Below, piece after piece: positions 30,492 to 62,595 of a stretch of 64,000 nt of DNA. Source of the stretch: Microbacterium sp. SORGH_AS_0428 (GTDB taxonomy: Bacteria; Actinomycetota; Actinomycetes; Actinomycetales; Microbacteriaceae). Each line of letters opens with the position of its first letter. Within the stretch, counting starts at the first letter, position 1. The stretch lies in assembly GCF_031453615.1 (NCBI RefSeq), contig NZ_JAVIZT010000001.1:1612001-1676000 (forward strand), read 5' to 3'. The notes below the pieces were generated by a model. It worked only from the letters and a program-made list of their open reading frames with translations, was not told the DNA's origin and searched no databases. Position numbers and translations under genes: made by a program.

Positions 30492-30499
<8 letters not shown>

Positions 30500-32152: not shown

Positions 32153-32175
32153 GGGGGGCCTTCCGGAGGGGATGC

Positions 32176-32203
32176 GGGGGATGCGGCGCGTGCCGCATCC
32201 CCC
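32176..32203 (-). other. Intercistronic hairpin between binding protein and permease genes
   Basis: Perfect 11-bp stem GGGGGATGCGG/CCGCATCCCCC with a 6-base loop follows the binding-protein stop (32212) and precedes the permease start (32152). Such hairpins commonly protect the binding-protein mRNA 3' end and lower permease expression in ABC operons. Confidence 0.6.
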
Positions 32204-32211
32204 GCTCGGGA

Positions 32212-33198: not shown

Positions 33199-33320
33199 CG
33201 AAGTGCCTCTCAGTGACGGGTAAGCAGGACGCCAACGCGAAGCATCCGTCACGCGGAGTCACCACCTCGAGCCCCCGACGCGTCGGCACCGCAGCGTGCT
33301 GACCCCCTCATGGTGCGGGG

Positions 33321-33372
33321 TTCAACGGGTGAAAGTCAAGAGATTCGTGACGCCCGTTTGCTTTTCGTTGAA
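33321..33372. promoter_or_regulatory. Inverted repeat in leader of importer 1 operon
   Basis: TTCAACG (33321-33327) and CGTTGAA (33366-33372) are perfect complements 38 bases apart, in the 207-base gap between the importer-1 binding-protein start and the reductase stop. A TTGACT box on the minus strand lies between them. This may be the operator/promoter region of the ABC operon, perhaps for the PaaX-like protein. Confidence 0.35.
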
Positions 33373-33405
33373 TCCGTGTCGGGCGTCAGGCCATGTTTCC
33401 TCTCC

Positions 33406-34314
33406 TCACCCCGGACCGTCGCTCGCCGCGGCCAGAAGCGGCACCACGACGTCGCTGATCGGAGTCAGCAGCCCGTGGCGGCGCGCGAGACGCGAGATGA
33501 CCTCATTGCGGACCTCCCACTCCAGCGGCCGGCCGGCCTCGCGATCCACCAGGATCGACGTGCCCATGTCCGCCGGCGCGTCCCGGAACCCGGCCAGGAT
33601 CTCCTCCAGGATGCGGTCCTCGACGAGCGCTCCCTCGGCGCGCGCGACGCGCGCGCATTCACGCAGATACGCCAGGGCAAGCTGCGCGATATCCGGCCGG
33701 GCGAACATCCCCGACCGCCGACCGGCGAGCACCATCAGGCCCGCCGTCGCGTTCTGCAGAAGCTTGCGCCACGCGGTCGTGACGTAGTCATCCTCGAGTC
33801 CCACGGCGCAGCGCGTGCCGCCAAGCGTCGCCGCGACGCGAAGGGCGGCGGGGGTGCGAGGCAGGCTGATGCGCGCGTCGCCGCGCAGCAGAACCGCGCC
33901 GTCAGACTGTCTCTGCGCGGGAAACCATACGACCGCCGGCACGATCTCGGTACCGCTCGGGACCAGTGGGGCGACGAGCTCGACCTGCTCGATACCGTTC
34001 TGCAGGACGCAGACCACGCTTCCCCGCCCGCAGAGGGCTGGCAGCCAATGCGCGGCAGCCTCGAGCTGCGTCGCCTTCACCGCCAGGAACACGATGTCTG
34101 CGACGGTCACAGACCGTCCGGGCTCGGTGCGCACCGGGCCTGGCACCTGGATGCGATGCTCACCCTCCCGGAACTCCAGGTGCGCCTGTCCGGTGCGGCC
34201 GTAGAGTCGGGGCGTCCGTCCGGCGTCGTGGAGCGCGGCGGCGATGGTCGTGCCGATGGCTCCCGGCCCCACGACGGCGACGGTCGGCGAATTCAGATCC
34301 TCGCGAGATGACAT
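33406..34314 (-). CDS. ketopantoate reductase family protein
   Basis: NADP-dependent ApbA/PanE-type reductase (302 aa). The Rossmann motif VVGPGAIGTTIAAAL is at residues 14-28, VKATQLEAA near 80 includes the family lysine, LQNGIEQVE near 104 the NG motif, and the C-terminal ketopantoate-binding domain shows WRKLLQNATAGLMVLAGR near 182. Many paralogues reduce 2-keto acids other than ketopantoate. Its position opposite an RpiR regulator, not near pantothenate genes, argues against housekeeping PanE. The ATG at 34314 lies seven bases after a TAACGT box, suggesting a leaderless message. Confidence 0.85.
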   Translation of the reverse strand: MSSREDLNSPTVAVVGPGAIGTTIAAALHDAGRTPRLYGRTGQAHLEFREGEHRIQVPGPVRTEPGRSVTVADIVFLAVKATQLEAAAHWLPALCGRGSVVCVLQNGIEQVELVAPLVPSGTEIVPAVVWFPAQRQSDGAVLLRGDARISLPRTPAALRVAATLGGTRCAVGLEDDYVTTAWRKLLQNATAGLMVLAGRRSGMFARPDIAQLALAYLRECARVARAEGALVEDRILEEILAGFRDAPADMGTSILVDREAGRPLEWEVRNEVISRLARRHGLLTPISDVVVPLLAAASDGPG

Positions 34315-38499: not shown

Positions 38500-39207
38500 A
38501 TGAGCCAGAGCCCGCATGTGCTCTTCGTCCACGGCGCGTGGGTCGGAGGGTGGGAGTTCGCCCCCGTCATCCCCCTGCTGCAGGCGCTCGGCTGGACGGT
38601 CGAGACCCTCGAACTGCCCGCCACGGGATCGACCGGGTCCCTCGCCGCCGACGCCGCGGCGCTGCGCGACCGCCTGGATCTCGCAGAGGATCCCGTCCTG
38701 CTGGTCGGCCACTCGTACGGCGGGGTGCCGGTGACCGAGGCCGGCGACCATCCCGCGGTCGCCGGGCTCGTCTACATCGCCGCGTTCGCACTGGATGCGG
38801 GAGAGAGCGTCCGGGGATCCGTCGGCGGCGAGTTCCCACCCGGGTGGCACGTCACGGGCGGCCAGGTCACCCTCGGCGCCACCCGCGAGGAGCGCGTCGC
38901 GATAGTCTCCGCCGACTTCCCGCCGGGCACTCCGGCGGAGGCGGGCGAGCAGCTCGCCGACATGTTCCGTCCGCAGTCACTCGCTTCTCTGACCGACCCC
39001 GTGACCGCGGTCGCCTGGCGCACGAAGCCGAGCTGGTACCTGCTCACCGAGAAGGACGTGCTCGTGCCGCCCGCGTTCCAGCAGGCGCTCGCCGAGCGCG
39101 CCGGATCCGAGATCGTTCGCCTCGCCAACGGACACGCACCGTTCCAGGAAGACCCGCAGGGCTTCGTCGATGCGCTGGCGCGCGTCGCCGCGAGCGCACT
39201 GGTCTGA
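38500..39207 (+). CDS. alpha/beta hydrolase (EstC-like)
   Basis: Hydrolase of 235 aa: FVHGAWVGGWEF at residues 9-20, nucleophile elbow GHSYGGV with serine 72, and NGHAPFQEDPQGF at the C-terminus with the histidine. It belongs to the compact esterase/hydroxynitrile-lyase-like group (EstC, PhaZ-like esterases). Followed 24 bases later by an aldehyde dehydrogenase, which together with the alcohol dehydrogenase may process the alcohol freed from an ester. Confidence 0.85.
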   Translation: MSQSPHVLFVHGAWVGGWEFAPVIPLLQALGWTVETLELPATGSTGSLAADAAALRDRLDLAEDPVLLVGHSYGGVPVTEAGDHPAVAGLVYIAAFALDAGESVRGSVGGEFPPGWHVTGGQVTLGATREERVAIVSADFPPGTPAEAGEQLADMFRPQSLASLTDPVTAVAWRTKPSWYLLTEKDVLVPPAFQQALAERAGSEIVRLANGHAPFQEDPQGFVDALARVAASALV

Positions 39208-39231
39208 CCCCACCCACCGAAGGAGCACCTC

Positions 39232-40731
39232 ATGACCCTCACCGACCCCGCATCCACCGCGACGGATGCGCACCCGCGCTCACGCGGGCAGCTGTTCATC
39301 GGCGGCGTCTGGCGCGACGCCTCCGACGGCGCCGTCATGGACGTCGTATCCCCCGCCACCGGCCGCAAGGTGGGCGAGGTCGCACGAGCGACCACCGCCG
39401 ACGTCGACGACGCCGTCGCCGCCGCGCGGGCCGCTTTCGACTCCGGCGTCTGGTCCCGCCTGTCGAGTCGGGAACGCGCCCGCATCCTGCAGCGCGCCTA
39501 CGCGCTCATGCGCGAGCGAACGGAAGAGCTCGCGCAGGCGGAGAGCCTGGATGTCGGCAAGCCCATCACGTTCGCGCGGATCATCGACGTGAACAACGCC
39601 GCGGAGCTCTACGAGTTCTACGCGAGCCTCGGCCACCATCTGGACGGCGACGTACGCGAGACGACCGGCAACACCCACGCCTATGTGAAGCGGGAGCCGA
39701 TCGGCGTGGTCGCGGCCATCACGCCGTTCAACTTCCCCCTCATCCTCTCCAGCTCCAAGATCGCTCCCGCCCTGATCGCCGGCAACACGATCGTCCACAA
39801 GCCCGCGAGCGACACCCCCCTCTCGGCCCTCATCATCGCCGACATCCTGCAGGAGGCGGGCGTGCCGGACGGCGTCTTCAACGTCGTCACGGGCCCCGGC
39901 GCGGCACTCGGCGACCACTTGGTCGGCCACCCGGGTGTCGACAAGATCGCCTTCACCGGATCGACCGAGATCGGCGCACACGCGGCGGCGATCGCCGGGC
40001 GCACGCTGAAGCCGTTCACGGCCGAGCTCGGCGGCAACGCGGCCAACATCCTGTTCGCCGATGCGGACCTGAGCGCCGCGATCAACACGGTGATCTCGGC
40101 ATTCGTGTTCAACTCCGGCCAGTTCTGCATGGCGGGCCCGAGGCTCCTCGTTCAGCGCCCGCTCTACGACACGGCGCTGGGCATCCTCGCCGATGCTCTT
40201 CCCCATGTGCCGTTCGGCGACCCGACGGATGAGGCGACCGTCATCGGTCCGCTCGCGAGCGCCACCCAGCTCGAGAAGGTGGCGGCGATGGTGGATCGTG
40301 CCCGCGCGGCGGGTGCGCGCATCGTCACGGGTGGCGAGCGCGCCGATCTCGGGGGCGGCTTCTACTACCGCCCGACCGTGATCGCCGACGTGCCGAACGA
40401 CGCGGAGGTCGTGGCCGAGGAGGTCTTCGGCCCCGTCCTGACCGTGCAGCCCTTCGACACCGAGGAGGAAGCGATCGTCCTCGCCAACTCGACGCCGTAC
40501 GGCCTGGCCTCCGGTATCCAGACCGCCGACCTCGCCAAGGCGCACCGCGTGGCCGCGCGCCTGGATGCGGGCATCACGTGGGTCAACGGCTGGGCACTGC
40601 TCGATCCCTCCGTCCCGTTCGGCGGCGTCAAGGCCTCCGGCTGGGGGCGCGAGAACGGACCCGAGGCGATGGCCTCGTACCAGCGCACCCATTCGATCGT
40701 CTTCAACCTCGAGACGGGAGCGTCGGCGTGA
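39232..40731 (+). CDS. aldehyde dehydrogenase
   Basis: NAD(P)-dependent aldehyde dehydrogenase (499 aa). Substrate-oxidising motifs: ITPFNFPLIL near 165, FTGSTEIGAHAA near 245, TAELGGNAANI with the general-base glutamate near 265, and catalytic cysteine 299 in NSGQFCMAGPR. Coupled to the alcohol dehydrogenase by a GTGA overlap, it should oxidise the aldehyde made by that enzyme to the acid. RBS AAGGAG precedes the ATG. Confidence 0.9.
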   Translation: MTLTDPASTATDAHPRSRGQLFIGGVWRDASDGAVMDVVSPATGRKVGEVARATTADVDDAVAAARAAFDSGVWSRLSSRERARILQRAYALMRERTEELAQAESLDVGKPITFARIIDVNNAAELYEFYASLGHHLDGDVRETTGNTHAYVKREPIGVVAAITPFNFPLILSSSKIAPALIAGNTIVHKPASDTPLSALIIADILQEAGVPDGVFNVVTGPGAALGDHLVGHPGVDKIAFTGSTEIGAHAAAIAGRTLKPFTAELGGNAANILFADADLSAAINTVISAFVFNSGQFCMAGPRLLVQRPLYDTALGILADALPHVPFGDPTDEATVIGPLASATQLEKVAAMVDRARAAGARIVTGGERADLGGGFYYRPTVIADVPNDAEVVAEEVFGPVLTVQPFDTEEEAIVLANSTPYGLASGIQTADLAKAHRVAARLDAGITWVNGWALLDPSVPFGGVKASGWGRENGPEAMASYQRTHSIVFNLETGASA

Positions 40732-41825
40732 CCGCCGGCCGCGCGGCTGTTCTCCAAGACGGCGCGCTGCGCGTCGAGGATGTGGAGTACGGGGCGCCGG
40801 GCCACGGCGAGGTGCTCGTGCGGCTCGTCGCGACGGGGCTGTGCCATACGGATCTCGGCGTGATCGCCGGCGGCATCCCGTTCCCCTCGCCCGGCGTCAT
40901 CGGGCACGAGGGCGCGGGCGTCGTCGAACAGGTCGGGGCGGGTGTGAGCTCCGTGGCACCCGGCGACAAGGTGCTGCTGAGCTTCACCTCGTGCGGAGCG
41001 TGCAGCGGATGCGCGGGCGGGCATCCCGCCTACTGCGAGACCTGGCAGGCGCGGAACCTCTTCGGCATGATGCGCCCCGACGACTCGGGCACCATCACCC
41101 ACGAGGGCGTCCCGGTGGCCGGGCACTTCTTCGGGCAGTCCTCGTTCGGGACCTACGCGATCGCCGACGAACGCTCCCTCGTCGCGGTGGACGCGACCGC
41201 CGATCTCACCGTGCTCGCACCGCTCGGTTGCGGCATCCTGACCGGCTTCGGATCGATGTGGAACGTGCTGGATCCGACCCCCGCCGACACGGTCGCCGTC
41301 TACGGCTCCGGCGCGGTCGGACTGTCGGCGATCATGGCGGCGGCGCACCGCGACCCCGCCGCGCTCGTCGCGATCGATCTCGTCGACGAGCGACTCGCGC
41401 TCGCCCGGCGGCTCGGTGCGACCCACACGATCAACGCGGGCATCGAGGACGTCGCGGCCCGGCTCGCTGAGATCACCGGCGGACACGGTGTCGACCTGAG
41501 CTTCGACACGACCGCGAGCCCGCGCGTGGCTCGGAGCGCGCTGGATGCCGCCGCCATCCGCGGCACGGTCCTCGTGTGCGGCGCACCCCCTCCCGGCACG
41601 GAGATCCCGGTGGACATCCAGGGGATCCTGACCGGGAAGGTGCTGCGCGGTGTCACGATGGGCGACACGCTGCCGCAGCAGCTCATCCCCGAACTCGCCC
41701 GTCTGCACGGCGAGGGCAGATTGCCGCTGGAGCTGTTGGAGAAGACGTACACGCTCGATGAGATCGAGCAGGCGGTCGCCGATATGCACCACGGCGTGAC
41801 GGTCAAGCCGGTCATCGTCTACTGA
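40728..41825 (+). CDS. zinc-dependent alcohol dehydrogenase (aryl/benzyl alcohol type)
   Basis: Medium-chain zinc dehydrogenase (365 aa), GTG start overlapping the aldehyde dehydrogenase stop. Catalytic zinc ligands in TGLCHTDLG (Cys, near 37) and GHEGAG (His); structural zinc site with four cysteines in CGACSGCAGGHPAYC; nucleotide motif VYGSGAVGLSA near 190. The N-terminal pattern and spacing resemble aryl-alcohol dehydrogenases (XylB/AreB), so benzyl-type alcohols are plausible substrates. Confidence 0.88.
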   Translation: MTAGRAAVLQDGALRVEDVEYGAPGHGEVLVRLVATGLCHTDLGVIAGGIPFPSPGVIGHEGAGVVEQVGAGVSSVAPGDKVLLSFTSCGACSGCAGGHPAYCETWQARNLFGMMRPDDSGTITHEGVPVAGHFFGQSSFGTYAIADERSLVAVDATADLTVLAPLGCGILTGFGSMWNVLDPTPADTVAVYGSGAVGLSAIMAAAHRDPAALVAIDLVDERLALARRLGATHTINAGIEDVAARLAEITGGHGVDLSFDTTASPRVARSALDAAAIRGTVLVCGAPPPGTEIPVDIQGILTGKVLRGVTMGDTLPQQLIPELARLHGEGRLPLELLEKTYTLDEIEQAVADMHHGVTVKPVIVY

Positions 41826-41901: not shown

Positions 41902-42675
41902 ATGTCGATGACGACATCGGAACCCCCTCCCCCACCCGCCCTCGCCTCAGTGGACCATGCGCTGCGCCTGCTGCTGCTGCTCGGCGATCGACCCGAACTT
42001 CGCGTGACCGAGGCCGCCGCTCGCCTCGGCGTGGCCCCATCGACCGCGCACCGCCTGCTGACGACTCTCGCCGCCCGTGGATTCGTCACCCAGGACCGGA
42101 TCTCGAAGGTCTATCGCGTAGGACCGGCGCTGATCGAGATCGGGGTGCACAGCACCAGCTCCATCGACCTGCGCGCTGCGGGTGAGCCGCACCTGAAGGT
42201 GCTCAGCCAACGGATCTCCGAGACGGTCAATCTCCTCGTCCGGCAGGGGGACTCCGTACGCTTCGTCGCGGGTTTCGAGGCGGACCAGCAGGTGCGCACG
42301 CAGGTGCTGACCGGCGCACTGCTGCCCGCCTACGCCACCTCGGGAGGCAAGGTGCTGCTGGCGGAGCTGTCCCGCGAGGAGCTGCGCGCCCTGTACCCGC
42401 GCGGCCTCCGGCGCCTGACACAGCGCACCCGGACCTTCACCCAGCTCATGGCGGAGCTTCCGCTCGTGATGATGCGCGGCTTCGCCGTCAACGACCAGGA
42501 GAGCCGCGACGGACTGTCGGCGATCGCCGTCCCGTTGCGCGCCCGGGACGGACGCGCGATCGCCGCGGTGGCGATGTCCGCCCCCAGTGCACGCCTGGGC
42601 GCCGAGCGGATGCGGGAGCTGGTCGTCGAGCTGCGCGCGTGCGCGTCGGCGATCCGCGGCGACCTGGCCCGGTGA
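41902..42675 (+). CDS. IclR family regulator of the decarboxylase/importer operon
   Basis: IclR protein (257 aa): winged helix with LRVTEAAARLGVAPSTAHRLLTTL near residues 33-56, effector domain with LKVLSQRISETVNLLVRQG, LPAYATSGGKVLLAE and GFAVNDQESRDGLSAIAVPL. It lies 133 bases upstream of the amidohydrolase-ABC-ThDP operon on the same strand, with a perfect palindrome between. It probably senses the operon's aromatic acid substrate; effector unknown. Confidence 0.88.
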   Translation: MSMTTSEPPPPPALASVDHALRLLLLLGDRPELRVTEAAARLGVAPSTAHRLLTTLAARGFVTQDRISKVYRVGPALIEIGVHSTSSIDLRAAGEPHLKVLSQRISETVNLLVRQGDSVRFVAGFEADQQVRTQVLTGALLPAYATSGGKVLLAELSREELRALYPRGLRRLTQRTRTFTQLMAELPLVMMRGFAVNDQESRDGLSAIAVPLRARDGRAIAAVAMSAPSARLGAERMRELVVELRACASAIRGDLAR

Positions 42676-42808: not shown

Positions 42809-43831
42809 ATGAAGATCGACGCCTTCTGCCACCTGTTGCCGGCCGAGTACGCCAAGCGACTCTTCGCCATCGACGACAGCCCCGTGGCCCGCAACATCCA
42901 GAAGCGGGTGAGCGGTGTTCCTGCCCTCGTGGACATGGACGAGCGGTTCCGGATCATGGACGAGTTCGGCCCCGACTACCGGCAGATCGTGAACTCGGCA
43001 GCACCGCCGCTGGAGGATCTCGGACCCACGGCGCGGACGGTGGAGCTCGCGCGGATCGCGAACGACGGGATGGCGGAGCTCACCCGGGACAACCCCGACC
43101 GCTTCGCCGGGTTCTGCGCCGCGGTGTCGCTCAGCGACGTCGACGCCGCGATCGCGGAGGCGGAGCGCGCCTTCGACGAGCTGGGCGCGGTGGGCGTCCA
43201 GATCTACACGCACGTCAACGGCGGCCCGATGGACCAGGAGCGGTTCTTCCCGTTCTACGAGGCGGTCGCCGCACGCGGCGACAAGATGATCCAGGTCCAC
43301 CCCTGCCGCGACTCCAGCTGGTCGGACTACAAGACCGAGGCGCGCTCGAAGTTCGAGATCTGGTGGACGTTGGGCTGGGAGTACGACCTGTCGGCCTTCA
43401 TGTCCCGGCTCGTGTTCTCCGGAGTGTTCGAGCGGCTGCCCGACATCAAGATCCTGATCCACCACGGCGGCGCGATGATCCCCCACTTCGCGGGCCGGAT
43501 CGGACCGGGCTGGGACCAGCTCGGCTCGCGCACCCCCGCCGATCAGGCGGAGGACATCGAGGGCTATCCCCTCACCGAGCGCCCCATCGACGCGTTCCGC
43601 CGCTTCTACGTCGACACCGCGTACTTCGGAGCGGGCGACGCGATGCGCACCGCCATCAAGTTCTTCGGCGTCGATCACACGCTCTTCGCCAGCGACACGC
43701 CCTTCGATCCCGAGAAGGGCCCCGGATACATCCGCTCCACGATCGCCAACCTCGAGGAGATGGACATCATCGACGACGCCGACCGAGCCGAGATCTACCA
43801 CGGCAACGTGTCGCGTCTGCTGGGGCTGTGA
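42809..43831 (+). CDS. amidohydrolase family 2 protein, ACMSD-like, altered HxH motif
   Basis: TIM-barrel protein (340 aa) resembling 2-amino-3-carboxymuconate-6-semialdehyde decarboxylase relatives. Expected metal ligands map to H8, H164 (QVHPC), H218 (ILIHHGG) and D296 (FASDTPFD). The first histidine of the usual HxH is Phe6 (sequence IDAFCHLLP), so the metal site is atypical. First gene of the operon that continues with the ABC importer. Probable decarboxylase or hydratase of an acidic substrate; activity without the first histidine is uncertain. Confidence 0.82.
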   Translation: MKIDAFCHLLPAEYAKRLFAIDDSPVARNIQKRVSGVPALVDMDERFRIMDEFGPDYRQIVNSAAPPLEDLGPTARTVELARIANDGMAELTRDNPDRFAGFCAAVSLSDVDAAIAEAERAFDELGAVGVQIYTHVNGGPMDQERFFPFYEAVAARGDKMIQVHPCRDSSWSDYKTEARSKFEIWWTLGWEYDLSAFMSRLVFSGVFERLPDIKILIHHGGAMIPHFAGRIGPGWDQLGSRTPADQAEDIEGYPLTERPIDAFRRFYVDTAYFGAGDAMRTAIKFFGVDHTLFASDTPFDPEKGPGYIRSTIANLEEMDIIDDADRAEIYHGNVSRLLGL

Positions 43832-43880
43832 CACCCGCACCACCCGACCGAGCTCCCGCTCACACAGAAAGAGGCAGACA

Positions 43881-44900
43881 ATGACGTTCCTGACCCTCCG
43901 CCGGACCGTGGCCCTGACCGCGGCCGCACTGATGACCCTCTCCCTCGCGGCCTGCGCGGGAGCCGCCGAGCCCGCTGGCGGTGATGAGACGGGCGCTCCG
44001 GAGAAGGCGAATCTGACCATCGCCATCAACCCGTCCTCGCAGTTCGCACCGCTGTACTACGGCATCGAGGAGGGCATCTTCGAGAAGCACGGGCTCACGC
44101 TCGAGATCACCCCGCAGACGGACGTCGCATCCATCGTCTCCGGTGTCGCCAGCGGAACCTACGACTTCGGCTTCGCCACCGTCGTGCACGTGCTCACCGC
44201 GAATGCGAACGGCATCCCGCTGCGCGCCGTGTCCACGATCGAAGGGCAGATCCAGCCCGACGACGAGGGGACGATCACGATCGCCTCGCCCACCTCCGGG
44301 ATCACCGACTACGGGGATCTCAAGGGCAAGCGCGTAGCCACCGTGGGACTGTCCTCTCACAACACGCTGACGCTGTGGGAGCTGGCGAGCCGCGACGGCG
44401 TGGACGCGAGCTCGATCGAGCTCGTGCAGATGCCCTTCGGCCAGATGGCGGCGGCCCTCGCCAACGGCGATGTCGACGCGGCGGTCATGCAGTGGCCGTT
44501 CGCGGCCGACGCGCTCTCGGCGGGCGGTGTGACGCTCGGGTACAACAACCGCGAGATCTTCAACGGCGCGGCGACGACGCTCTTCAACACGTCGCAGTCC
44601 TTCATCGATCAGAACCCGAAGACCGTGCGAGCGTTCTCGGACGCGATGATCGAGTCGATCGAAGGGGCATCGGCGAACGAGGATGCGGCGCGCTCCGCTC
44701 TGGAGAAGGGGATGGGAGTGACGGCCGAGCAGGCCGCGGCCGCGCGCTGGAACATCGGCGGCGATCCCCGCCTGACCGTCACCGGATTCGAGACGGCGCG
44801 CGACCTGCTCGTCAAGTTCGGCACCGACCAGTCCCTGACCGACGCCCTGAAGAACCTTGACGTCGACTCGGTCGTGTGGCCCGGCGCCCTGGAGAACTGA
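43881..44900 (+). CDS. ABC substrate-binding lipoprotein, NMT1/TauA-like, importer 2
   Basis: Lipoprotein (339 aa) with signal peptide ending LSLAAC (cysteine near residue 26). The mature protein follows the NMT1 pattern: LTIAINPSSQFAPLYYGIEEGIFEKHGL near 49-76, GVASGTYDFGFATVVH, LKGKRVATVGLSSHNT and the acidic C-terminus. AGAAAGAGG precedes the ATG. Paralogue of the importer-1 binding protein but in a different operon; an aromatic carboxylate is the likeliest ligand given the decarboxylases around it. Confidence 0.88.
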   Translation: MTFLTLRRTVALTAAALMTLSLAACAGAAEPAGGDETGAPEKANLTIAINPSSQFAPLYYGIEEGIFEKHGLTLEITPQTDVASIVSGVASGTYDFGFATVVHVLTANANGIPLRAVSTIEGQIQPDDEGTITIASPTSGITDYGDLKGKRVATVGLSSHNTLTLWELASRDGVDASSIELVQMPFGQMAAALANGDVDAAVMQWPFAADALSAGGVTLGYNNREIFNGAATTLFNTSQSFIDQNPKTVRAFSDAMIESIEGASANEDAARSALEKGMGVTAEQAAAARWNIGGDPRLTVTGFETARDLLVKFGTDQSLTDALKNLDVDSVVWPGALEN

Positions 44901-44942
44901 CATGACGTCGCACTCCTTCCCCGCCCGTGAGAAGGCCGGCGG

Positions 44943-45758
44943 ATGAGGGGCGCAGCGCGTGAGCGCGGCCTCGCCGTGGTGCTGCCCCTGCTGGCCGTGG
45001 CGATCGTCCTCGTCGCCTGGCAGCTGGCGACATCGACGGCGCTGGTGAGCCCGACGCAGTTCCCCTCCATGACAGACTCCCTCGCGGCCCTCCTCCAGGA
45101 ACTCACGACGCCGCGACTGTGGTCCGCCGTGGGGGCGACGCTCATCGGCTGGTTCTTCGGCATGGTCATCACGATCACGCTGGGCCTGGTCGTGGGCACG
45201 GCGCTGGCACACAGCGACATCGCCCGCCAGAGCGCAGCACCCGTGATCGAGACCTTCAAGGCGATCCCCGCGATCGCCGTACTGCCGCTGGTGATCCTCG
45301 TCGCCGGCTCCACGCTGCCGATGAAGATCTTCCTCATCTGCTTCGCCGCGTTCTGGCCGTTCGTCATCCAGGTGATCTACGGCGTGCGCTCGATGGATCC
45401 CGTCGTGGCGGACACCGCCAAGGCGCTCGGAGTGCGCGGCATCCGGCGTTTCCTCGTGGTCAGCATCCCGAGCGCGTCGCCGTACCTCGTCACCGGGATG
45501 CGGATCGCCTCGGCGCAGGCGCTCATCCTGGCGGTGGTGGCGGAGATCGTGGGCGGCGCCGCGGGCGTCGGGCGCAACATCCTGCTCGCCGAGAACGCCG
45601 GGGTGAGCGCCTACCCCACGATGTACGCGTACATCATCGTCGCGGGACTGCTGGGCATCGCCCTCACCGGAGCGTTCTTCCTCATCGAGAAGCGGTTGAT
45701 GCACTGGCACGAGTCGCAGCGCAACATGCGGCTCGAGGCGAAGGGGGCGCGCGCATGA
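44943..45758 (+). CDS. ABC transporter permease 1, importer 2
   Basis: Permease (271 aa), about six helices, EAA loop DTAKALGVRGIRRFLVVSIP near residue 155. Its stop overlaps the next permease as ATGA. Pairs with a different permease to form a likely heterodimer. Confidence 0.88.
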   Translation: MRGAARERGLAVVLPLLAVAIVLVAWQLATSTALVSPTQFPSMTDSLAALLQELTTPRLWSAVGATLIGWFFGMVITITLGLVVGTALAHSDIARQSAAPVIETFKAIPAIAVLPLVILVAGSTLPMKIFLICFAAFWPFVIQVIYGVRSMDPVVADTAKALGVRGIRRFLVVSIPSASPYLVTGMRIASAQALILAVVAEIVGGAAGVGRNILLAENAGVSAYPTMYAYIIVAGLLGIALTGAFFLIEKRLMHWHESQRNMRLEAKGARA

Positions 45759-46582
45759 GCCGGCTCACCACCAGCACCGTTCCCGTGCCGCGCCGCCGCT
45801 CGGGTCCGTTCGCCTCCCGCCTCGTCGGTGTGCTGCTCGCGCTGTGGCTGCCCGTCGTCCTGATCGCGGTGTGGTGGTTCGTCTCGGCCGGCAGCACGTC
45901 GCCGTTCTTTCCTCCGCTGTCGCGAATCGTGCAGGAGACCTGGAACCAGTGGGTCGTCTACGGGGCGTGGACGAACCTCATCGCGAGCGTCCGGAACCTC
46001 GTCCTGGGCTACCTCGCGGGCGTCGTCATCGGCCTGGTCGGCGGCACCGTGCTGTGGCGGTGGCGACGGGTGCGCCAGGCGGCGAACCCGCTCATCTACT
46101 TCCTCTACGTCCTGCCCGCACCGGCTCTGCTTCCGGCGATGATCGCGATCTTCGGGATCGGCGAGATGCGGCAGATCGCGCTCATCGCGCTGGGGTCCAT
46201 CTGGCCCACGCTGCTGAACACGCTGGACGGGATGCGGGGGATCTCGGGCACGGCGTTCGACACCGCACGCGTGCTGCGCCTGGGCGGGATCCGTACCTTC
46301 TTCCGCGTGGTGCTGCCCGCCGCTGCGCCGCAGATCGCGGCGGGGATGCGGGCGAGCCTGACCATCGCCATCGTGCTGATGGTCGTGAGCGAGATGGTCG
46401 CTGCCCGCTCGGGCATCGGCTACTTCATCCTGCAGGCGCAGGCGGAGTTCGCGATCGTGAAGATGTGGACCGGCATCCTCGTCCTCGCACTGCTCGGCAC
46501 TGTCCTGAACTACCTCTTCGTCGTCGTCGAGCGCCGCGCCCTGCGCTGGTACTACCGCTCGCGGGCCGCGAACGGATCCTAA
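45755..46582 (+). CDS. ABC transporter permease 2, importer 2
   Basis: Permease (275 aa), about six helices, EAA loop DTARVLRLGGIRTFFRVVLPA near residue 170 and a C-terminal basic tail (RRALRWYYRSR). Located between permease 1 and the ATPase, which starts nine bases after its stop. Confidence 0.88.
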   Translation: MSRLTTSTVPVPRRRSGPFASRLVGVLLALWLPVVLIAVWWFVSAGSTSPFFPPLSRIVQETWNQWVVYGAWTNLIASVRNLVLGYLAGVVIGLVGGTVLWRWRRVRQAANPLIYFLYVLPAPALLPAMIAIFGIGEMRQIALIALGSIWPTLLNTLDGMRGISGTAFDTARVLRLGGIRTFFRVVLPAAAPQIAAGMRASLTIAIVLMVVSEMVAARSGIGYFILQAQAEFAIVKMWTGILVLALLGTVLNYLFVVVERRALRWYYRSRAANGS

Positions 46583-46591
46583 GGAGGATCG

Positions 46592-47398
46592 ATGTCCCAC
46601 CCCACATCCACCGTCCCCGTCCTCGAGGTCGAAGGACTGCGAAAGACCTACAACGAGGGCACCGATCAGGCCAACACCGCCGTCGCGGACGTCAGCTTCG
46701 AGGTCGCGAAGGGCGAGCTGGTCTGCATCGTCGGCCCCAGCGGCGCGGGCAAGACGACGCTGCTGCGCTGCATCTCCGGGCTCGCCTCTCCCAGTGGCGG
46801 CGAGGTGCGCTTCGAGGGCGACCGCCTCACCGACGTTCCCGCCGAGCTCGGCCTCGTCTTCCAGGACTACAGCCGCTCGCTGTATCCCTGGATGACGAAC
46901 GCGAAGAACGTCGCCATCCCTCTCGCCGCGCGCGGCGTGGGGCGGCGAGAGCGTGAGCGACGCGCCGAGGAGGTGCTGGAGAGCGTGGGCCTCGCGCACG
47001 TGGGCAAGAAGTACCCGTGGGAGCTGTCGGGAGGCATGCAGCAGCGGGTCGCCATCGCGCGCGCCCTGTCGTACCGCCCCGAGCTCCTCCTCATGGACGA
47101 GCCCTTCGCGTCGGTCGACGCGCAGACCCGGTTCGACCTCGAGGATCTCGTCCTGCGGGTGCGCAACGAACTCGGGATCACGGTCGTCGTCGTCACCCAC
47201 GACATCGACGAGGCCATCTACCTGAGCGACCGCATCGTGGTGCTCTCGAAGAACCCGAGCGTGGTTCGCGAGGTGGTTCCCGTGCCCCTCGGACGCACCC
47301 GCGACCAGGTGCGCACCCGCGCCAGTCAAGAGTTCCTGGATCTTCGCGCGCATCTCCTCTCGCTCGTCATGCCTGCATCCACGGCGGCTCTCTCGTGA
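46592..47398 (+). CDS. ABC transporter ATPase, importer 2
   Basis: ATPase (268 aa): Walker A GPSGAGKTT at about 49-57, VFQDYSRSLYPW, signature LSGGMQQR, Walker B LLMDEPFASVD, VTHDIDEAIYL. An AAGGAGG lies before the ATG. The same layout (SBP, two permeases, one ATPase) as importer 1, with clearly diverged sequence. Confidence 0.9.
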   Translation: MSHPTSTVPVLEVEGLRKTYNEGTDQANTAVADVSFEVAKGELVCIVGPSGAGKTTLLRCISGLASPSGGEVRFEGDRLTDVPAELGLVFQDYSRSLYPWMTNAKNVAIPLAARGVGRRERERRAEEVLESVGLAHVGKKYPWELSGGMQQRVAIARALSYRPELLLMDEPFASVDAQTRFDLEDLVLRVRNELGITVVVVTHDIDEAIYLSDRIVVLSKNPSVVREVVPVPLGRTRDQVRTRASQEFLDLRAHLLSLVMPASTAALS

Positions 47399-48906
47399 GT
47401 GGCCCCGGCATCGTCGCGGCGTTCCCCGTCGTCGACGCGCACAGCCCGGTCGAGCTCGGGCACCTCATCGACGCGGAGGAGCGCGCGGGCGGCGCGCGCA
47501 TCGACGTGCGCAACCCCGCCCGCGTCAGCGAGATCGTCGGCGTCGTGTTCGACGGCGGCGCGGCCGAGGTGACCGCGGCGGTGGATGCGGCGGCGCGCGC
47601 AGCCGCATCCTGGTCCCGCTCGGACATCGCGGATCGCGAACGCCTGCTGCGCCGCGCAGCGGACGTGATCGACGAGCACGCCGATCGTCTGGCGGTCTTG
47701 ACGGCGAGGGAGAACGGATCGCCGCTCGCGACCGTCCGCGCCGAGACCGGCGCCGCTGCGACCGTGTTCCGTGCGATCGCCGACGCCGTCGCCGAGCGTC
47801 TCGAACCCGAGCTGCATCGCCGCGGCGCCGACGACGCCTACGTGCGGGTCGAGCGCCGAGGGTTCGGGGTGGTCGGCTGCATCGTGCCGTGGAACGCCCC
47901 GCTCGTGCTCACCGCCAACAAGATCGCGCCCGCGATCGCGGCCGGCAACGCGGTCGTGGTCAAGCCCTCGCCCACGTCCCCGCTGGGGGTGACGGTGCTC
48001 GCGCGCCTGGTCGGCGCCGTCTTCCCCCCGGGTGTCGTCTCGGTGGTGAACGGCACGGCCGCCGCCGTCGAGGCGCTGATCGACGACCCACGGGTGGGCA
48101 AGGTGTCGTTCACGGGGGGCGGGCAGACCGCGCGCCACGTGCTGGCGCGGGCCGCGACGGCGCTGAAGCCCGTCCATCTGGAGCTGGGGGGCAACGATCC
48201 CGCGATCGTGCTGGCGGACGCGGACCTGGCCCACGCTGCGGAGGGGATCGTCGCCTCCGCGTACCGCCGCGCCGGTCAGGTGTGCTTCGCCGTCAAGCGC
48301 GTCTACGTTCCGCGCGGGCAGCACGCGGAGCTCTCCGCGCTTCTCGCGGAGCGGATCGACGGGATGCGCGTGGGCGAGTCGCTGCATCCGCAGGCGACGA
48401 TGGGCCCGCTCAACAACGCCGCCCAGCTGGAACGCGTGCGCGGGATCGTCGAACGTACCCGCGCTGCGGGCCGCGAGGTGCGTGAGCTGGGGCGTCCGGT
48501 GTCCACGACCGACTGGGACGGCGGGCACTTCCTGCTCCCCCACCTCGTGACGGATGCGCGTCAGGAGGACGAGCTCGTGCGGGACGAGCAGTTCGGCCCC
48601 GTGCTGCCGGTGGTCGCCTACGACGACGTCGCCCAGGCCGTCGCCTGGGCCAACGACACCCCCTTCGGCCTGGCCTCGTCCGTGTGGTCGCGCGATCCGG
48701 TCGCGAGCGCTGCCGTGGCCCGCGAGATCGAGGCCGGGGTCACCTTCGTGAACAGCCACCTGTTCTCGCCCGAAGGCTCGCGCTGGATCCCGTTCGGCGG
48801 CTGGAAGCAGAGCGGCATGGGCTGGGAAGGCTCGCCCCATGGGATCGACGAATACCTCCGCTTCCACAGCGTCGACGGTCACGTCCTCGCCGGGGGCCGC
48901 TCATGA
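47395..48906 (+). CDS. aldehyde dehydrogenase
   Basis: Aldehyde dehydrogenase (503 aa) with GTG start overlapping the ATPase stop. Motifs: GCIVPWNAPLVLTANKIAPA near 160, VSFTGGGQTARHV, HLELGGNDPAIV with glutamate, and catalytic cysteine 297 in GQVCFAVKR. In the operon it precedes the ThDP enzyme, consistent with oxidation of an aldehyde released by decarboxylation of a 2-keto acid; that sequence of steps is inferred. Confidence 0.88.
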   Translation: MSGPGIVAAFPVVDAHSPVELGHLIDAEERAGGARIDVRNPARVSEIVGVVFDGGAAEVTAAVDAAARAAASWSRSDIADRERLLRRAADVIDEHADRLAVLTARENGSPLATVRAETGAAATVFRAIADAVAERLEPELHRRGADDAYVRVERRGFGVVGCIVPWNAPLVLTANKIAPAIAAGNAVVVKPSPTSPLGVTVLARLVGAVFPPGVVSVVNGTAAAVEALIDDPRVGKVSFTGGGQTARHVLARAATALKPVHLELGGNDPAIVLADADLAHAAEGIVASAYRRAGQVCFAVKRVYVPRGQHAELSALLAERIDGMRVGESLHPQATMGPLNNAAQLERVRGIVERTRAAGREVRELGRPVSTTDWDGGHFLLPHLVTDARQEDELVRDEQFGPVLPVVAYDDVAQAVAWANDTPFGLASSVWSRDPVASAAVAREIEAGVTFVNSHLFSPEGSRWIPFGGWKQSGMGWEGSPHGIDEYLRFHSVDGHVLAGGRS

Positions 48907-50657
48907 CGACGACCGCCGCCGCCATGCTGGTCGACACCCTCCGCGCGGCCGGCGTCGAGCACGTGTTCGCCAATCTCGGCAGCGACCATCCGGCGCTCAT
49001 CGAGGCGCTCGCCGCGGATCGTGCACGCGGCGAGCGCGTCCCCCGGGTCATCGTGTGCCCGCACGAGTACACGGCGCTGAGCGCGGCGCACGGTTACGCC
49101 CTCGCCACGGGGCGCCCCCAGGCGGTGTTCGTCCACACGGATGTGGGGACCGCCAACCTCGGCGGCTCCGTACACAACGCGGCACGCGCGCGCGTGCCGG
49201 TCCTGATCTTCGCGGGGCTCACGCCCTACACGCTCGAGGGCGAGGAGCAGGGGGGCCGTGACACCCACGTGACCTTCCTCCAGGACGTGCCCGACCAGCA
49301 CGCGCTCGTGCGGCCATATGCGAAATGGTCGTACGACCTGCGCACCGCGGCGAACGTTCCGCAGGTCGTCCTCCGCGCCCTGCAGCTGACACGCAGCAGC
49401 CCCGCAGGCCCGGTGTATCTCACCGCCGCGCGCGAAGTGCTCGCCCAGAGCGCCCCGGCCCCCGAGACGGCGATCGAGCGCTGGCCGCGCATCGCCCCCG
49501 CCGCGGCCGGCGCCGATGTCGTGCGTTCGATCGTGGACGCGCTCGCCGGCGCCTCCCGCGCGACGATCGTGACGACCTCCGTCGGGCGGGACCGGGATGC
49601 GGTCGCCCGCCTCGTGACGCTCGCGGAGAGATGGGGCATCGGCGTCGTCGAGCACAACGCGGAGGTGCTGAGCTTCCCGCACGATCACCCACTGCACCTG
49701 GGCGACGCCCCGGCCGCGGCGGTGGAGACATCCGATGTCCTGATCGTGCTGGACGCCGACGTGCCGTGGATCCCCGCCGCCGTGCAGCCCGCCCCCGACG
49801 CACGCATCTTCGTGGTGAGCGACGACCCGCTCCAGGAGCGCATCCCCCTCTGGTACCTGCCGGCCGAGGCGCTCATCCGCGCCGATGCGCTCACCTTCCT
49901 CGACCAGCTGCTGGAACATGCCCCCGATGCCGCTCAGGCCGAGGCCGCGGCTGCGCGCCGCGAGAGCGTGGCGGCCGACGCCCACCGCGCCCGGGCCGAG
50001 CGGGCCGAGCGCATCGCGGCGGACGTCGCAGAGCGACGCCTGTCTGCGGGCAGCGTCGGCGCCACCCTGTCGCGGCTGATCGACACCGAGACGATCATCG
50101 TCAATGAGGCCATCACGGCGGCACCGGACATCTGGCGATCCCTGCCGCGCACCTTGCCGGGCACGGTGTTCGGCAACCGCGGAACATCTCTGGGCTGGTC
50201 GGGCGGCGGAGCCCTCGGCATCAAGCTCGCCGAGCCGAACCGGCGCGTCGTCAGCATCGTCGGCGACGGCACGTTCTACTTCAGTGCACCTTCCTCCGCC
50301 GCATCCGTCGCCGCGCGCTACGGTCTCGCCACGCTCACCGTCATCCTCGACAACGGCGGCTGGAACGCGACCAGGCGCAACGCGGTGCGTCAGTATCCGG
50401 ACGGCGTCGCCCAGCGCGATGAACGGTTCTGGGTCGGGCTCGGCCGTGAGGCCGACCTGCCCGGAATCGCTCGCGCCGCGGGCGGCGGCTGGGCGGCCAC
50501 CGTCACGGACTTCGACGACCTGGAGGACACCCTGCGCACGGCGCTCGGCCATGTCGACGGCGGCGTGCCCGCGACGGTCGCCGTGCGCCTGCCGGACATC
50601 TCCACGCACGACATCGACGAGCCGGCTGCCGCCGCAGAAAGGATCCACGTTCCATGA
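48903..50657 (+). CDS. ThDP-dependent 2-keto acid decarboxylase/acetolactate synthase family enzyme
   Basis: Three-domain ThDP enzyme (584 aa). The cofactor-activating glutamate is in VCPHEYTALSAAHGYA near 55, the central domain near 200-350, and the ThDP-Mg motif is GDGTFYF...LDNGG near 455-485, with DN where NN is usual and 26 residues instead of 24 between. It is most like benzoylformate decarboxylase / acetolactate synthase relatives. Neighbouring decarboxylases and an aldehyde dehydrogenase favour a keto-acid decarboxylase; a ligase-type reaction is the alternative. ATGA overlap with the aldehyde dehydrogenase. Confidence 0.8.
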   Translation: MTTTAAAMLVDTLRAAGVEHVFANLGSDHPALIEALAADRARGERVPRVIVCPHEYTALSAAHGYALATGRPQAVFVHTDVGTANLGGSVHNAARARVPVLIFAGLTPYTLEGEEQGGRDTHVTFLQDVPDQHALVRPYAKWSYDLRTAANVPQVVLRALQLTRSSPAGPVYLTAAREVLAQSAPAPETAIERWPRIAPAAAGADVVRSIVDALAGASRATIVTTSVGRDRDAVARLVTLAERWGIGVVEHNAEVLSFPHDHPLHLGDAPAAAVETSDVLIVLDADVPWIPAAVQPAPDARIFVVSDDPLQERIPLWYLPAEALIRADALTFLDQLLEHAPDAAQAEAAAARRESVAADAHRARAERAERIAADVAERRLSAGSVGATLSRLIDTETIIVNEAITAAPDIWRSLPRTLPGTVFGNRGTSLGWSGGGALGIKLAEPNRRVVSIVGDGTFYFSAPSSAASVAARYGLATLTVILDNGGWNATRRNAVRQYPDGVAQRDERFWVGLGREADLPGIARAAGGGWAATVTDFDDLEDTLRTALGHVDGGVPATVAVRLPDISTHDIDEPAAAAERIHVP

Positions 50658-51706
50658 ACGCCGACGCACACCGCCCGCCGTATCTGCGCATCGCGACGGA
50701 GGAGGCCTGGGCGCCGCCCGAGGCGATCGCGCTGTACCGCGACCATCTCGCGCGCCGCGACCTGGACGACGTCGGCTTCAACAGCCTGATGGGCTACTTC
50801 CTGAACTCCCCTCACCCGCAGCCGCGTGCGGTCGTGGAGCGCCTGCAGGACGCGGCCGAGCGACGCATCGCCGACATGGATGCGACCGGCATCGACCACC
50901 AGGTGCTCGCCCTCACCTCGCCGGGAACCCAGGTGCTGCCCGCCGATGAGGCCGTGGCGCTGGCCGAGACCGCCAACGCACGGCTCGGTGAGATCTGCCA
51001 GGCGCGGCCGGAGCGCTTCTCCGGGCTGGGGACGGTGTCGTTCACGGATGCCGCGACGGATGTCGCGGCACTGCGCCGCGCGGTCGGGGAACACGGGCTG
51101 AAGGGCCTGATGCTGAACGATCACGTGCGCGGCGATCACCTGGACCATCCGCGTTTCGCGCCGCTGCTGCGTGAGCTGGAGGATCTCGACGTGCCGCTGT
51201 ATCTGCATCCAGGCACACCCCCGAACGCCATGATCGCCCCCTATCGCGAAGCCGGGCTCGACGGGGCGATCCTCGGTTTCGGTGCCAGCGCGGGGCTCCA
51301 TCTGCTCCGGATCATCACGTCGGGCGTCTTCGATCGCCATCCGCGTCTGCGGCTCGTGGTCGGGCACCTGGGCGAGGCGCTTCCGTTCTGGCTGCACCGC
51401 ATCGATCACATGCATGCCAAGCAGGTCGCCTCCGGACGCTACGAGGCGATCAAGCCGCTCGCGCAGCGGCCCTCGGAGTACTTCCGCTCCCACATCTGGC
51501 TCACGACCTCGGGGATGCCCTGGGAGCCGGCGATCCTGTTCACCCGCGAGGTGACGGGTCCGGACCGCGTGATGTACGCGATGGACTATCCGTATCAGTT
51601 CGAGGCCGATGAGGTCGCGGCGCAGGACGCCCTGCCGATCTCGGATGCGGAGAAGGCCGACTTCTTCGAGAACACCGCGCGGCGGGTCTTCAACCTGACG
51701 TTCTGA
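50654..51706 (+). CDS. LigW-like aromatic acid decarboxylase (amidohydrolase family)
   Basis: Protein of 350 aa closely resembling, from memory, 5-carboxyvanillate decarboxylase LigW and gamma-resorcylate decarboxylases: N-terminal YLRIATEEAWAP with metal glutamate E16, LYLHPGTPPNAM with H185, VVGHLGEALPFWLHRIDHMH near 236, and MYAMDYPYQFEADEV with D311. Amidohydrolase decarboxylases use Glu-x-x in place of the HxH motif, as here. It likely removes a carboxyl group from a hydroxylated aromatic acid and acts with the ThDP enzyme of the same operon. ATG overlaps the ThDP gene stop. Confidence 0.85.
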   Translation: MNADAHRPPYLRIATEEAWAPPEAIALYRDHLARRDLDDVGFNSLMGYFLNSPHPQPRAVVERLQDAAERRIADMDATGIDHQVLALTSPGTQVLPADEAVALAETANARLGEICQARPERFSGLGTVSFTDAATDVAALRRAVGEHGLKGLMLNDHVRGDHLDHPRFAPLLRELEDLDVPLYLHPGTPPNAMIAPYREAGLDGAILGFGASAGLHLLRIITSGVFDRHPRLRLVVGHLGEALPFWLHRIDHMHAKQVASGRYEAIKPLAQRPSEYFRSHIWLTTSGMPWEPAILFTREVTGPDRVMYAMDYPYQFEADEVAAQDALPISDAEKADFFENTARRVFNLTF

Positions 51707-51778: not shown

Positions 51779-52213
51779 ATGCGCGCCGTCGGGACGATCC
51801 GGGTCGAACGTGAGCCCCGGGAGGTCTTCGACTTCCTCGAGCTCGTGGAGCATGAGACGTCCTGGCGGCAGTCCGTGACGGGCTCGCGATACGTCGACGC
51901 CACGCGTCCCGCAGTCGGCACCGTCGGCGAGACCATCGCCTCGATGGGATCGCGCAGCGTACGGATGGGGTGGACGGTGATCGCGCTCGAGCCGGGCCGT
52001 CGTGTGGCGTGGGAACTCGACGGCGATCCCTGGCTCGGTGGCGGGAGTTACACCGTCGCGGCCTCGGGCGGCGGCTCGACGGTGACGGCGGAGCTCACCA
52101 TCAGGCTCCACGGGGTCATGCGAGCCGCGGAGCCCCTTCTGTGGCTGCCGTTCCGGAAAGGGCTCCGCGATGATCTGCGTCGCTTGAAGCAGAGGATGGA
52201 GCAGCATGCCTGA
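51779..52213 (+). CDS. SRPBCC (START-like) family protein
   Basis: Small cytoplasmic polyketide-cyclase-like protein (144 aa): VEREPREVFDFLELVEHETSWRQSV at the start, GWTVIALEPGRRVAWEL near 63, and a helix at the C-terminus (LRDDLRRLKQRMEQ). These folds bind hydrophobic ligands. It is followed in an overlap by a VOC protein; substrate unknown. Confidence 0.75.
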   Translation: MRAVGTIRVEREPREVFDFLELVEHETSWRQSVTGSRYVDATRPAVGTVGETIASMGSRSVRMGWTVIALEPGRRVAWELDGDPWLGGGSYTVAASGGGSTVTAELTIRLHGVMRAAEPLLWLPFRKGLRDDLRRLKQRMEQHA

Positions 52214-52553
52214 GCCGCGCGGGATCGACAACGTCTTCGTCGAGGTCGGCGATCTAGACGAAGCGGTGGGCTGGTACGAACGGGTGGTCGGACTGACGCT
52301 CAAGGTGCGCACGCCCGATATGGCGGTACTCGACGTCGGAGGAGACGTGGCCGGGATCGTCCTCAGCAGTGCTGACCAGGTCTCGCCGACGAAGGTCTGG
52401 TTCGAGGTGGCGGACGCCCGCGACGCGGCCACGGAACTCGGCGTGCAGACCTTCCCGATTCCGACCGGGCTGACGGCAGAGGTCGTCGACCCCTGGGGCA
52501 ACCGCATCGGCTTCACCGACTACACGGCACGTCCGGATCTCGCCCGCTCATGA
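52206..52553 (+). CDS. VOC/glyoxalase-bleomycin resistance superfamily protein
   Basis: Single VOC domain (115 aa), metal-site pattern in IDNVFVEVGDLDEAVGWYERVVGLTL and VVDPWGNRIGFTDY. Such proteins range from dioxygenases and epimerases to antibiotic-binding proteins; the short single-domain form does not decide. Overlaps the SRPBCC stop by 8 bases. Confidence 0.78.
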   Translation: MPEPRGIDNVFVEVGDLDEAVGWYERVVGLTLKVRTPDMAVLDVGGDVAGIVLSSADQVSPTKVWFEVADARDAATELGVQTFPIPTGLTAEVVDPWGNRIGFTDYTARPDLARS

Positions 52554-62443: not shown

Positions 62444-62548
62444 CATGCCTCCTCGTCGATGGCAGGGAGACGTCGAATGTGCGCAGAATCGCGTCTTCAT
62501 CGACGTCGTTTCGGGTGTCGCCATCCGACTCTGGAGGGCGACCCGGTG

Positions 62549-62595
62549 AACGTAGCACGATCTCATTTACATGTAAACAGGAATGGACGTAAACT
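62549..62595. promoter_or_regulatory. Divergent promoters sharing palindrome TTTACATGTAAA
   Basis: TTTACATGTAAA (62566-62577) is a perfect 12-base palindrome. On the minus strand TTTACA (complement 62572-62577) has a 17-base spacer to -10 TACGTT (complement 62549-62554), toward the transketolase operon. On the plus strand TTTACA (62566-62571) has 18 bases to -10 TAAACT (62590-62595), toward the aldehyde dehydrogenase. A second GTAAAC half site is at 62589-62594. A single repressor bound to the palindrome would block both -35 boxes. Confidence 0.6.

What the first reader, a model, noticed from the sequence alone, without database searches (positions are those of the whole stretch)
42809..51706. 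Candidate aromatic acid import and decarboxylation operon with LigW-like, ACMSD-like and ThDP enzymes
One IclR-linked operon encodes an amidohydrolase, a complete NMT1-type importer, an aldehyde dehydrogenase, a ThDP decarboxylase-like enzyme and a LigW-like decarboxylase, all tightly coupled from the importer genes on. I know no named pathway with this set. One reading: import of an aromatic 2-keto acid or polycarboxylate, decarboxylation, oxidation of the aldehyde, then entry to protocatechuate through the pca genes at 1-17 kb.
Basis: partly seen in the sequence, partly recalled or inferred. Interest (0 to 1): 0.7.

Follow-up and report, generated by a model that had tools for sequence, protein, structure and literature searches.

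The report
Lignin-type aromatic acid uptake and decarboxylation operon
An actinobacterium carries one operon that appears to import a plant-derived aromatic acid, cut carbon dioxide off its side chain, oxidise the resulting aldehyde and cut off a second carbon dioxide; each enzyme type is known, but the combination does not match any described pathway that I found.

Summary
An IclR gene precedes AH1 (amidohydrolase superfamily), an NMT1-type ABC importer, an aldehyde dehydrogenase (ALDH), a ThDP enzyme and AH2 (LigW-like), tightly coupled. AH2 is 51% identical to Novosphingobium LigW and keeps 7 of 8 reported active-site residues. The ThDP enzyme is PRK08327; its nearest solved relatives are benzoylformate decarboxylases. 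In relative G091 a non-orthologous benzoylformate-decarboxylase-like enzyme lies between ATPase and ALDH. ThDP and AH2 relatives share 12 longest-contig lengths, offset mean 0.51. LigM O-demethylases and gallate-type genes lie 15-47 kb downstream; G364 repeats this about 26 kb from its operon. Best reading: import of a lignin-type aryl-C2 acid, ThDP decarboxylation to an aryl aldehyde, oxidation, then LigW-type decarboxylation; AH1 is a second probable decarboxylase. This joins the benzoylformate pathways of R. jostii and Pseudomonas to the FerD-LigW pair. Substrate and step order are inferred. AH2 is missing beside two sister operons, so a linear chain is unproven. New variant of a known kind.

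The parts
41902..42675 (+). IclR-family regulator
   Evidence: PF01614 and PF09339; kept next to AH1 in L004, L005 and G364 and next to AH2 in G091
42809..43831 (+). AH1: amidohydrolase-superfamily enzyme, probable metal-dependent decarboxylase
   Evidence: PF04909; predicted model pLDDT 90.4, Foldseek neighbours 3ij6, then gamma-RSD, ACMSD, LigW and iso-orotate decarboxylase
43881..44900 (+). NMT1/SsuA-type substrate-binding lipoprotein
   Evidence: PF09084; SsuA family below cut-off, 98.7 of 163.5 bits; lipobox LAAC read by eye
44943..45758 (+). ABC importer permease 1
   Evidence: PF00528
45755..46582 (+). ABC importer permease 2
   Evidence: best NCBIfam match is ABC permease SaoP, 103.5 of 295 bits; 4-base overlap with permease 1
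46592..47398 (+). ABC importer ATPase
   Evidence: PF00005; 9 bases after permease 2
47395..48906 (+). Aldehyde dehydrogenase, probable aryl-aldehyde oxidation
   Evidence: aldehyde dehydrogenase families in NCBIfam, the 25 listed all below their cut-offs; GQVC with Cys297 and ELGG motif at 263; 4-base overlaps on both sides
48903..50657 (+). ThDP enzyme, probable aryl-2-oxoacid (benzoylformate-type) decarboxylase
   Evidence: PRK08327 605.3 bits, cut-off 456; family profile nearest to benzoylformate decarboxylase; E55 and H78 invariant in 43 sequences, position 27 Ser or Thr
50654..51706 (+). AH2: LigW-type decarboxylase
   Evidence: 51% identity to 4inf over the aligned stretch; Glu19, His188, Phe212, His241, Arg252, Asp314, Tyr317 kept, Arg58 is Gln

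Best explanation
The operon takes up and strips down a lignin-type aromatic acid. The NMT1-type ABC importer brings in a hydroxylated, probably methoxylated aryl-C2 acid. The ThDP enzyme decarboxylates the aryl-2-oxoacid (an arylglyoxylate, as benzoylformate decarboxylase does) to an aryl aldehyde. The ALDH oxidises this to an aryl carboxylic acid. AH2 then removes a carboxyl group that sits ortho to a phenolic OH, with LigW chemistry. AH1 is a second metal-dependent decarboxylase for a related carboxyl group or intermediate. The products enter O-demethylation by LigM-type enzymes and the protocatechuate or gallate-type routes in the same region. Shown: gene order, families, conserved residues, linkage. 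Inferred: substrate, order of steps, direction, AH1 reaction, induction through IclR.
For: LigW residues kept in AH2 (residues from PMC8187880 and PMC6031855 passages). ThDP profile best against benzoylformate decarboxylase, 164.6 bits, versus 121.8 for the best acetolactate synthase; the best Foldseek hits are BFDC variants, with the 4-hydroxybenzoylformate decarboxylases 6qsi and 7orx among them (model pLDDT only 75.9, TM about 0.5). G091 has AH1 (68%), AH2 (63%), IclR (51%), ALDH (39%) and importer (SBP 31%, ATPase 62%), with a BFDC-family ThDP (PRK07092, 315 bits, cut-off 493) in place of PRK08327. ThDP and AH2 lists (120 best each) share 12 contig lengths against an offset mean of 0.51, max 4; two of the contigs (11511 and 3323969) appear in the AH1 list too. 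LigM: 2 copies over cut-off and 2 below lie 15-43 kb downstream in the own genome; G364 has the same island about 26 kb from its operon. AH2 relatives lie within about 8 kb of a LigM gene in M. halotolerans L042 and in G234, the latter also 1.7 kb from a lignostilbene-dioxygenase-like gene below cut-off. Sagittula has AH1 (46%) and ALDH with a divergent ThDP (36%), a TRAP importer and an alpha-hydroxy acid oxidase.
Against: L005 and G364 carry the first eight genes but no AH2 in the stretches held, so AH2 is not needed for the core. AH2 relatives occur without an intact ThDP neighbour in L042, G234 and G1028. AH1 relatives occur without the ThDP gene in the 20 kb held of G406, G215 and G515. 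LigW Arg58 is not kept at the aligned column. The region of BFDC His281 shows no aligned His, though that part of the alignment is weak. The ThDP enzyme fails the benzoylformate decarboxylase model, 157.8 of 493 bits. PRK08327 has no tested function known to me; relatives lie near an amidohydrolase of another type in L037 and L072 and an amidase-like gene (by eye) in L036. LigM is absent from G215, G515 and G1028 and present in 2 of 7 same-genus controls. The AH1-AH2 contig coincidences (4) lie within the null (max 4). No biochemical data.
Confidence: 0.5

Rival explanations
1. Two routes share one operon: importer, ThDP and ALDH handle benzoylformate-type acids, while AH2 and AH1 serve other substrates such as 5-carboxyvanillate or 5-carboxyferulate. 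The steps are parallel, not in series.
For: AH2 relatives occur without the ThDP gene near LigM and ALDH (L042, G234) or next to a FAD hydroxylase read by eye (G1028); core operons lack AH2 in L005 and G364; LigW is known to act after an ALDH without a ThDP enzyme (PMC11323797 passages).
Against: ThDP and AH2 relatives share 12 contig lengths, one only 3389 bases, and the genes overlap by 4 bases here.
Confidence: 0.3
2. The ThDP enzyme is a lyase or carboligase on aryl alpha-diketones or alpha-hydroxyketones rather than an oxoacid decarboxylase.
For: Benzaldehyde lyase and cyclohexane-1,2-dione hydrolase are also in the match list.
Against: They score about 121 bits against 164.6 for benzoylformate decarboxylase; a BFDC-family enzyme stands in for it in G091.
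Confidence: 0.12
3. A non-aromatic substrate, for example a sulfonate or a nitrogen heterocycle, imported by the SsuA/TauA-like system.
For: Importer parts match sulfonate and taurine families below cut-off; PRK08327 relatives lie near other amidohydrolase or amidase-like genes in L036, L037 and L072.
Against: All listed importer matches are below their cut-offs; LigW site in AH2; LigM/gallate-type island nearby in two genera.
Confidence: 0.08

Closest known systems
4-Hydroxybenzoylformate (aryl-C2) pathway of Rhodococcus jostii RHA1
   Same: ThDP decarboxylase turns arylglyoxylates into vanillin or 4-hydroxybenzaldehyde, with a vdh gene in the cluster; proposed for lignin aryl-C2 fragments (PMC9811514 passages)
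   Different: The RHA1 enzyme (7orx) is a weaker match than other BFDCs, and PRK08327 is another family; ABC importer and two amidohydrolase-superfamily enzymes added; no alpha-hydroxy acid oxidase among the nine genes
bzf cluster of Pseudomonas sp. LLC-1
   Same: Benzoylformate decarboxylase, transporter and multifunctional ALDH beside vanillate genes (PMC7760541 passages)
   Different: MFS transporter and porin instead of ABC importer; LysR instead of IclR; no LigW-like or AH1-like gene named in the passages seen
FerD-LigW pair of Novosphingobium aromaticivorans and Sphingobium SYK-6
   Same: ALDH makes an ortho-hydroxy carboxylate that LigW decarboxylates (PMC11323797 passages)
   Different: The aldehyde comes from lignostilbene cleavage there, not from a ThDP enzyme

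Membership tests
LigW-type 5-carboxyvanillate decarboxylase (AH2) | Metal ligands Glu19, His188, Asp314 and catalytic Tyr317 | tested here: met
   All kept in the window protein and in the four relatives aligned (roles in PMC8187880 passages)
LigW-type 5-carboxyvanillate decarboxylase (AH2) | Pocket residues Phe212, His241, Arg252 | tested here: met
   Kept (residues named in PMC6031855)
LigW-type 5-carboxyvanillate decarboxylase (AH2) | Pocket residue Arg58 | tested here: inconclusive
   Gln at the aligned column, an Arg two residues later; 4icm (5-carboxyvanillate decarboxylase of Sphingomonas) has Ala at that column
LigW-type 5-carboxyvanillate decarboxylase (AH2) | Activity on 5-carboxyvanillate or 5-carboxyferulate | not testable with these tools
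   Needs an assay
Benzoylformate decarboxylase (ThDP) | ThDP-activating Glu and the GDG...N cofactor motif | tested here: met
   E55, G454-D455-G456 and N484 each 43 of 43
Benzoylformate decarboxylase (ThDP) | Active-site Ser26 and His70 (numbers recalled; mutants of them named in PDB titles) | tested here: met
   H78 43 of 43; position 27 Ser in 7 and Thr in 36; the window protein has Ser; pairing from the alignment
Benzoylformate decarboxylase (ThDP) | Active-site His281 | tested here: inconclusive
   No His aligned there, but the two chains printed are engineered variants and the alignment is weak in that part
Benzoylformate decarboxylase (ThDP) | NCBIfam PRK07092 benzoylformate decarboxylase cut-off | tested here: not met
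   157.8 bits, cut-off 493; it passes PRK08327 instead, 605.3 of 456
ACMSD (AH1) | HxH metal motif near the N terminus | tested here: not met
   Motif is D4-x-F6-x-H8, Phe in place of the first His, nearly invariant (His-x-His pattern of ACMSD recalled)

The most novel reading that the evidence does not exclude
The operon is a side-chain removal line for ring carbon 5 of lignin units: an ortho-hydroxyarylglyoxylate (from beta-5 or related linkages) is decarboxylated, oxidised to an ortho-hydroxybenzoate and decarboxylated again, so that a whole two-carbon substituent leaves the ring, with AH1 as a second decarboxylase of a family whose reaction is not known.
Probability: 0.22. Interest if true: 0.7.

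Novelty: new variant of a known kind. Interest (0 to 1): 0.5.

Why it matters
In the papers that I saw, worked-out routes for 5-substituted lignin fragments come from sphingomonads. This operon would give Gram-positive bacteria an import-and-trim route that joins the aryl-C2 (benzoylformate) logic to LigW chemistry, and it would assign a role to PRK08327 and to the AH1 family, both without a tested function known to me. It is directly testable with a small set of candidate acids.

Tried and rejected
Isatinate/auxin-type decarboxylation by the ThDP enzyme was considered because Novosphingobium capsulatum has a relative near cat genes and a MarR regulator; two paper searches gave nothing, and the LigM island fits better. 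Sulfonate import was considered from NCBIfam names and set aside because the listed matches are below their cut-offs. The Polyketide_cyc2 and VOC genes at 51779-52553 were dropped from the operon: L004 has no room for them between AH2 and the convergent ALDH. Two further strict paper searches gave no paper. Four plasmid stretches carried no annotation and were not used; four more (Aneurinibacillus, Rhizobium etli, Thermus, Thermomicrobium) and Halobaculum were seen and not counted: their ThDP or AH1 relatives lie outside a comparable cluster, though R. etli has an aromatic-looking one. Searches of the order at stricter limits found no AH1 beyond the own genome (1 of 396, E <= 1e-120) and one further AH2 (2 of 376, E <= 1e-100). 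Of the shared contig lengths, 6039 (AH1 and ThDP lists) and 2513 (AH1 and AH2 lists) may be chance. A gene that I took by eye for FolD and a PIG-L-like gene gave no NCBIfam match at 1e-25.
Full report
Check of the observation. The nine genes from IclR to AH2 are complete and in frame, with start and stop codons and gaps listed. Permease 1 and 2, ATPase and ALDH, ALDH and ThDP, and ThDP and AH2 overlap by 4 bases. Pfam confirms the families of the seven operon proteins given to it; permease 2 and the ALDH were checked by NCBIfam only. The window is bases 1612001-1676000 of a 3.30 Mb single contig.

The decarboxylases. AH2 matches LigW of Novosphingobium best (366.7 bits) and gamma-resorcylate decarboxylase far less (151.2 bits for 2dvt). 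On an alignment of seven sequences, seven of the eight residues that two papers place in the LigW active site are kept and Arg58 is not (passages of PMC8187880 and PMC6031855). AH1 is a different branch: its nearest solved chain is 3ij6, an uncharacterised protein, and a confident model (pLDDT 90.4) resembles 3ij6, gamma-resorcylate decarboxylase, ACMSD, LigW and iso-orotate decarboxylase. In 51 sequences H164, H218, H219 and D296 are invariant and H8 nearly so, while the first His of the usual HxH motif is Phe. I therefore call it a probable decarboxylase of unknown substrate.

The ThDP enzyme passes NCBIfam PRK08327 (605.3 bits, cut-off 456) and fails the benzoylformate decarboxylase model (157.8 of 493). 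A profile of 20 relatives finds benzoylformate decarboxylases first among solved structures (164.6 bits against 121.8 for the best acetolactate synthase). Foldseek agrees, with a model of moderate quality (pLDDT 75.9) and TM-scores of only about 0.5. In 43 sequences (the window and 42 loci) the ThDP glutamate (E55) and the histidine matching BFDC His70 are invariant and the residue matching Ser26 is Ser or Thr. No His lines up with His281, but the alignment is weak there.

Conservation. One scan of GTDB genomes by the ThDP protein gave 39 loci. L004 holds all nine genes; L005 (Microbacterium SYP-A9085) holds the first eight and no AH2 in the 10 kb after the ThDP gene. The own genome counted, AH1 at E <= 1e-90 occurs in 4 of 398 genomes of the family and 4 of 396 of the phylum (two genomes are in both counts), and AH2 at E <= 1e-70 in 3 of 398 (at most five candidates scored per genome). 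Only the own genome and G091 have both. G364 has the first eight genes in order, some frame-split; G091 has AH1 (68%), ALDH (39%), importer (SBP 31%, ATPase 62%), IclR (51%) and AH2 (63%) in another arrangement, with a BFDC-family ThDP (27%) between ATPase and ALDH. So the role of an oxoacid decarboxylase seems to be kept while the gene is exchanged. In three lists of the 120 best protein clusters each, ThDP and AH2 share 12 longest-contig lengths (offset mean 0.51, max 4), AH1 and ThDP 6 (0.65, max 4), AH1 and AH2 4 (0.89, max 4). The last count is within the null; the first is not. Equal length is indirect evidence of the same contig.

Setting. The own genome has four LigM/DesA-family O-demethylases at 1678.7-1707.0 kb, two over the LigM cut-off (926 and 876 bits) and two below (517 and 444), and a fifth weak partial match elsewhere (26 bits). 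With them lie PurU (352 of 286 bits), a CHA aldolase (277 of 179 for one model, 247 of 304.5 for the other), an oxalomesaconate tautomerase just under cut-off (437 of 440) and an extradiol dioxygenase below its cut-off (289.5 of 320). G364, of another genus, has the same island at 1953-1969 kb and the operon at 1995-2004 kb. LigM was sought in 13 further genomes: present in the AH1/AH2 carriers G091, G234 and G364, absent in the more distant carriers G215, G1028 and G515, and present in 2 of 7 same-genus controls; in G091 no LigM lies within 100 kb of the operon. AH2 relatives lie within about 8 kb of LigM in M. halotolerans (871.6 bits) and G234 (581.7 of 580), the latter also near a lignostilbene-dioxygenase-like gene below cut-off (438 of 800).

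Wider contexts. On plasmids, Sagittula stellata has AH1 (46%) and ALDH with a divergent ThDP gene (36%), a TRAP importer, an alpha-hydroxy acid oxidase, a FAD monooxygenase and IclR; Pacificitalea has IclR, a class II aldolase, a ThDP protein (33% over part), ALDH, a TTT importer and AH1 (49%); Rhizobium WYJ-E13 has AH1 (50%) one LysR gene away from pcaGH; Comamonas 7D-2 has an ALDH-ThDP pair on a plasmid with ligA. These point to aromatic acids, with importers of different kinds.

Mechanism. Known precedents are the 4-hydroxybenzoylformate pathway of R. jostii (ThDP decarboxylase to vanillin or 4-hydroxybenzaldehyde, vdh in the cluster; passages of PMC9811514; glycolate oxidase in the same cluster, passages of PMC10167727, and PMC10795516), the bzf cluster of Pseudomonas LLC-1 (passages of PMC7760541), and FerD then LigW on 5-formylferulate (passages of PMC11323797; passages and abstract of the review PMC12997858). 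Joining them gives import, ThDP decarboxylation, oxidation and LigW-type decarboxylation. The join is inference. Against a strict series stand the sister operons without AH2 and the AH2 genes without ThDP.

Novelty. Searches of the held library found no paper that joins a benzoylformate decarboxylase and 5-carboxyvanillate decarboxylase in one operon, as far as listings show: one search listed two overview articles, one paper with Microbacterium and 5-carboxyvanillate, two with Microbacteriaceae, LigM and lignin; I saw these five in listing only. Most subscription papers are not held. I file it as a new variant of a known kind.

Noticed in passing
own genome C1:1675001-1711000 (L079, L080), just right of the window: Island with four LigM/DesA-family O-demethylases, PurU, CHA aldolase, oxalomesaconate tautomerase and an extradiol dioxygenase; the LigM hit reported with one TGA corresponds to an uninterrupted 464-aa ORF in L079 (12152-13546).
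   Followed up: partly
window 28855-34314: A second NMT1-type importer on the minus strand (binding protein by Pfam, other parts by eye) with a ketopantoate-reductase-like gene beside it; similar reductases lie in the ThDP clusters of Sagittula and Novosphingobium capsulatum.
   Followed up: no
window 38500-41825: Alpha/beta hydrolase, ALDH and zinc alcohol dehydrogenase directly upstream of the IclR gene; the ALDH and alcohol dehydrogenase are kept in L004, the hydrolase there only in part.
   Followed up: no
window 51779-52553: Polyketide_cyc2 and small VOC genes after AH2 that are absent from the otherwise collinear L004.
   Followed up: partly
window 60603-62566: Transketolase split in two subunits, about 4 kb from a Peripla_BP_4 binding-protein gene and its neighbours.
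   Followed up: no
window 7211-7867: Chloramphenicol-acetyltransferase family protein (PF00302) inside the pca-type region.
   Followed up: no
L042 10001-10595: Microbacterium halotolerans shows only pieces of the ThDP gene (residues 21-101 and 454-567), near an NMT1 importer and LigM.
   Followed up: no
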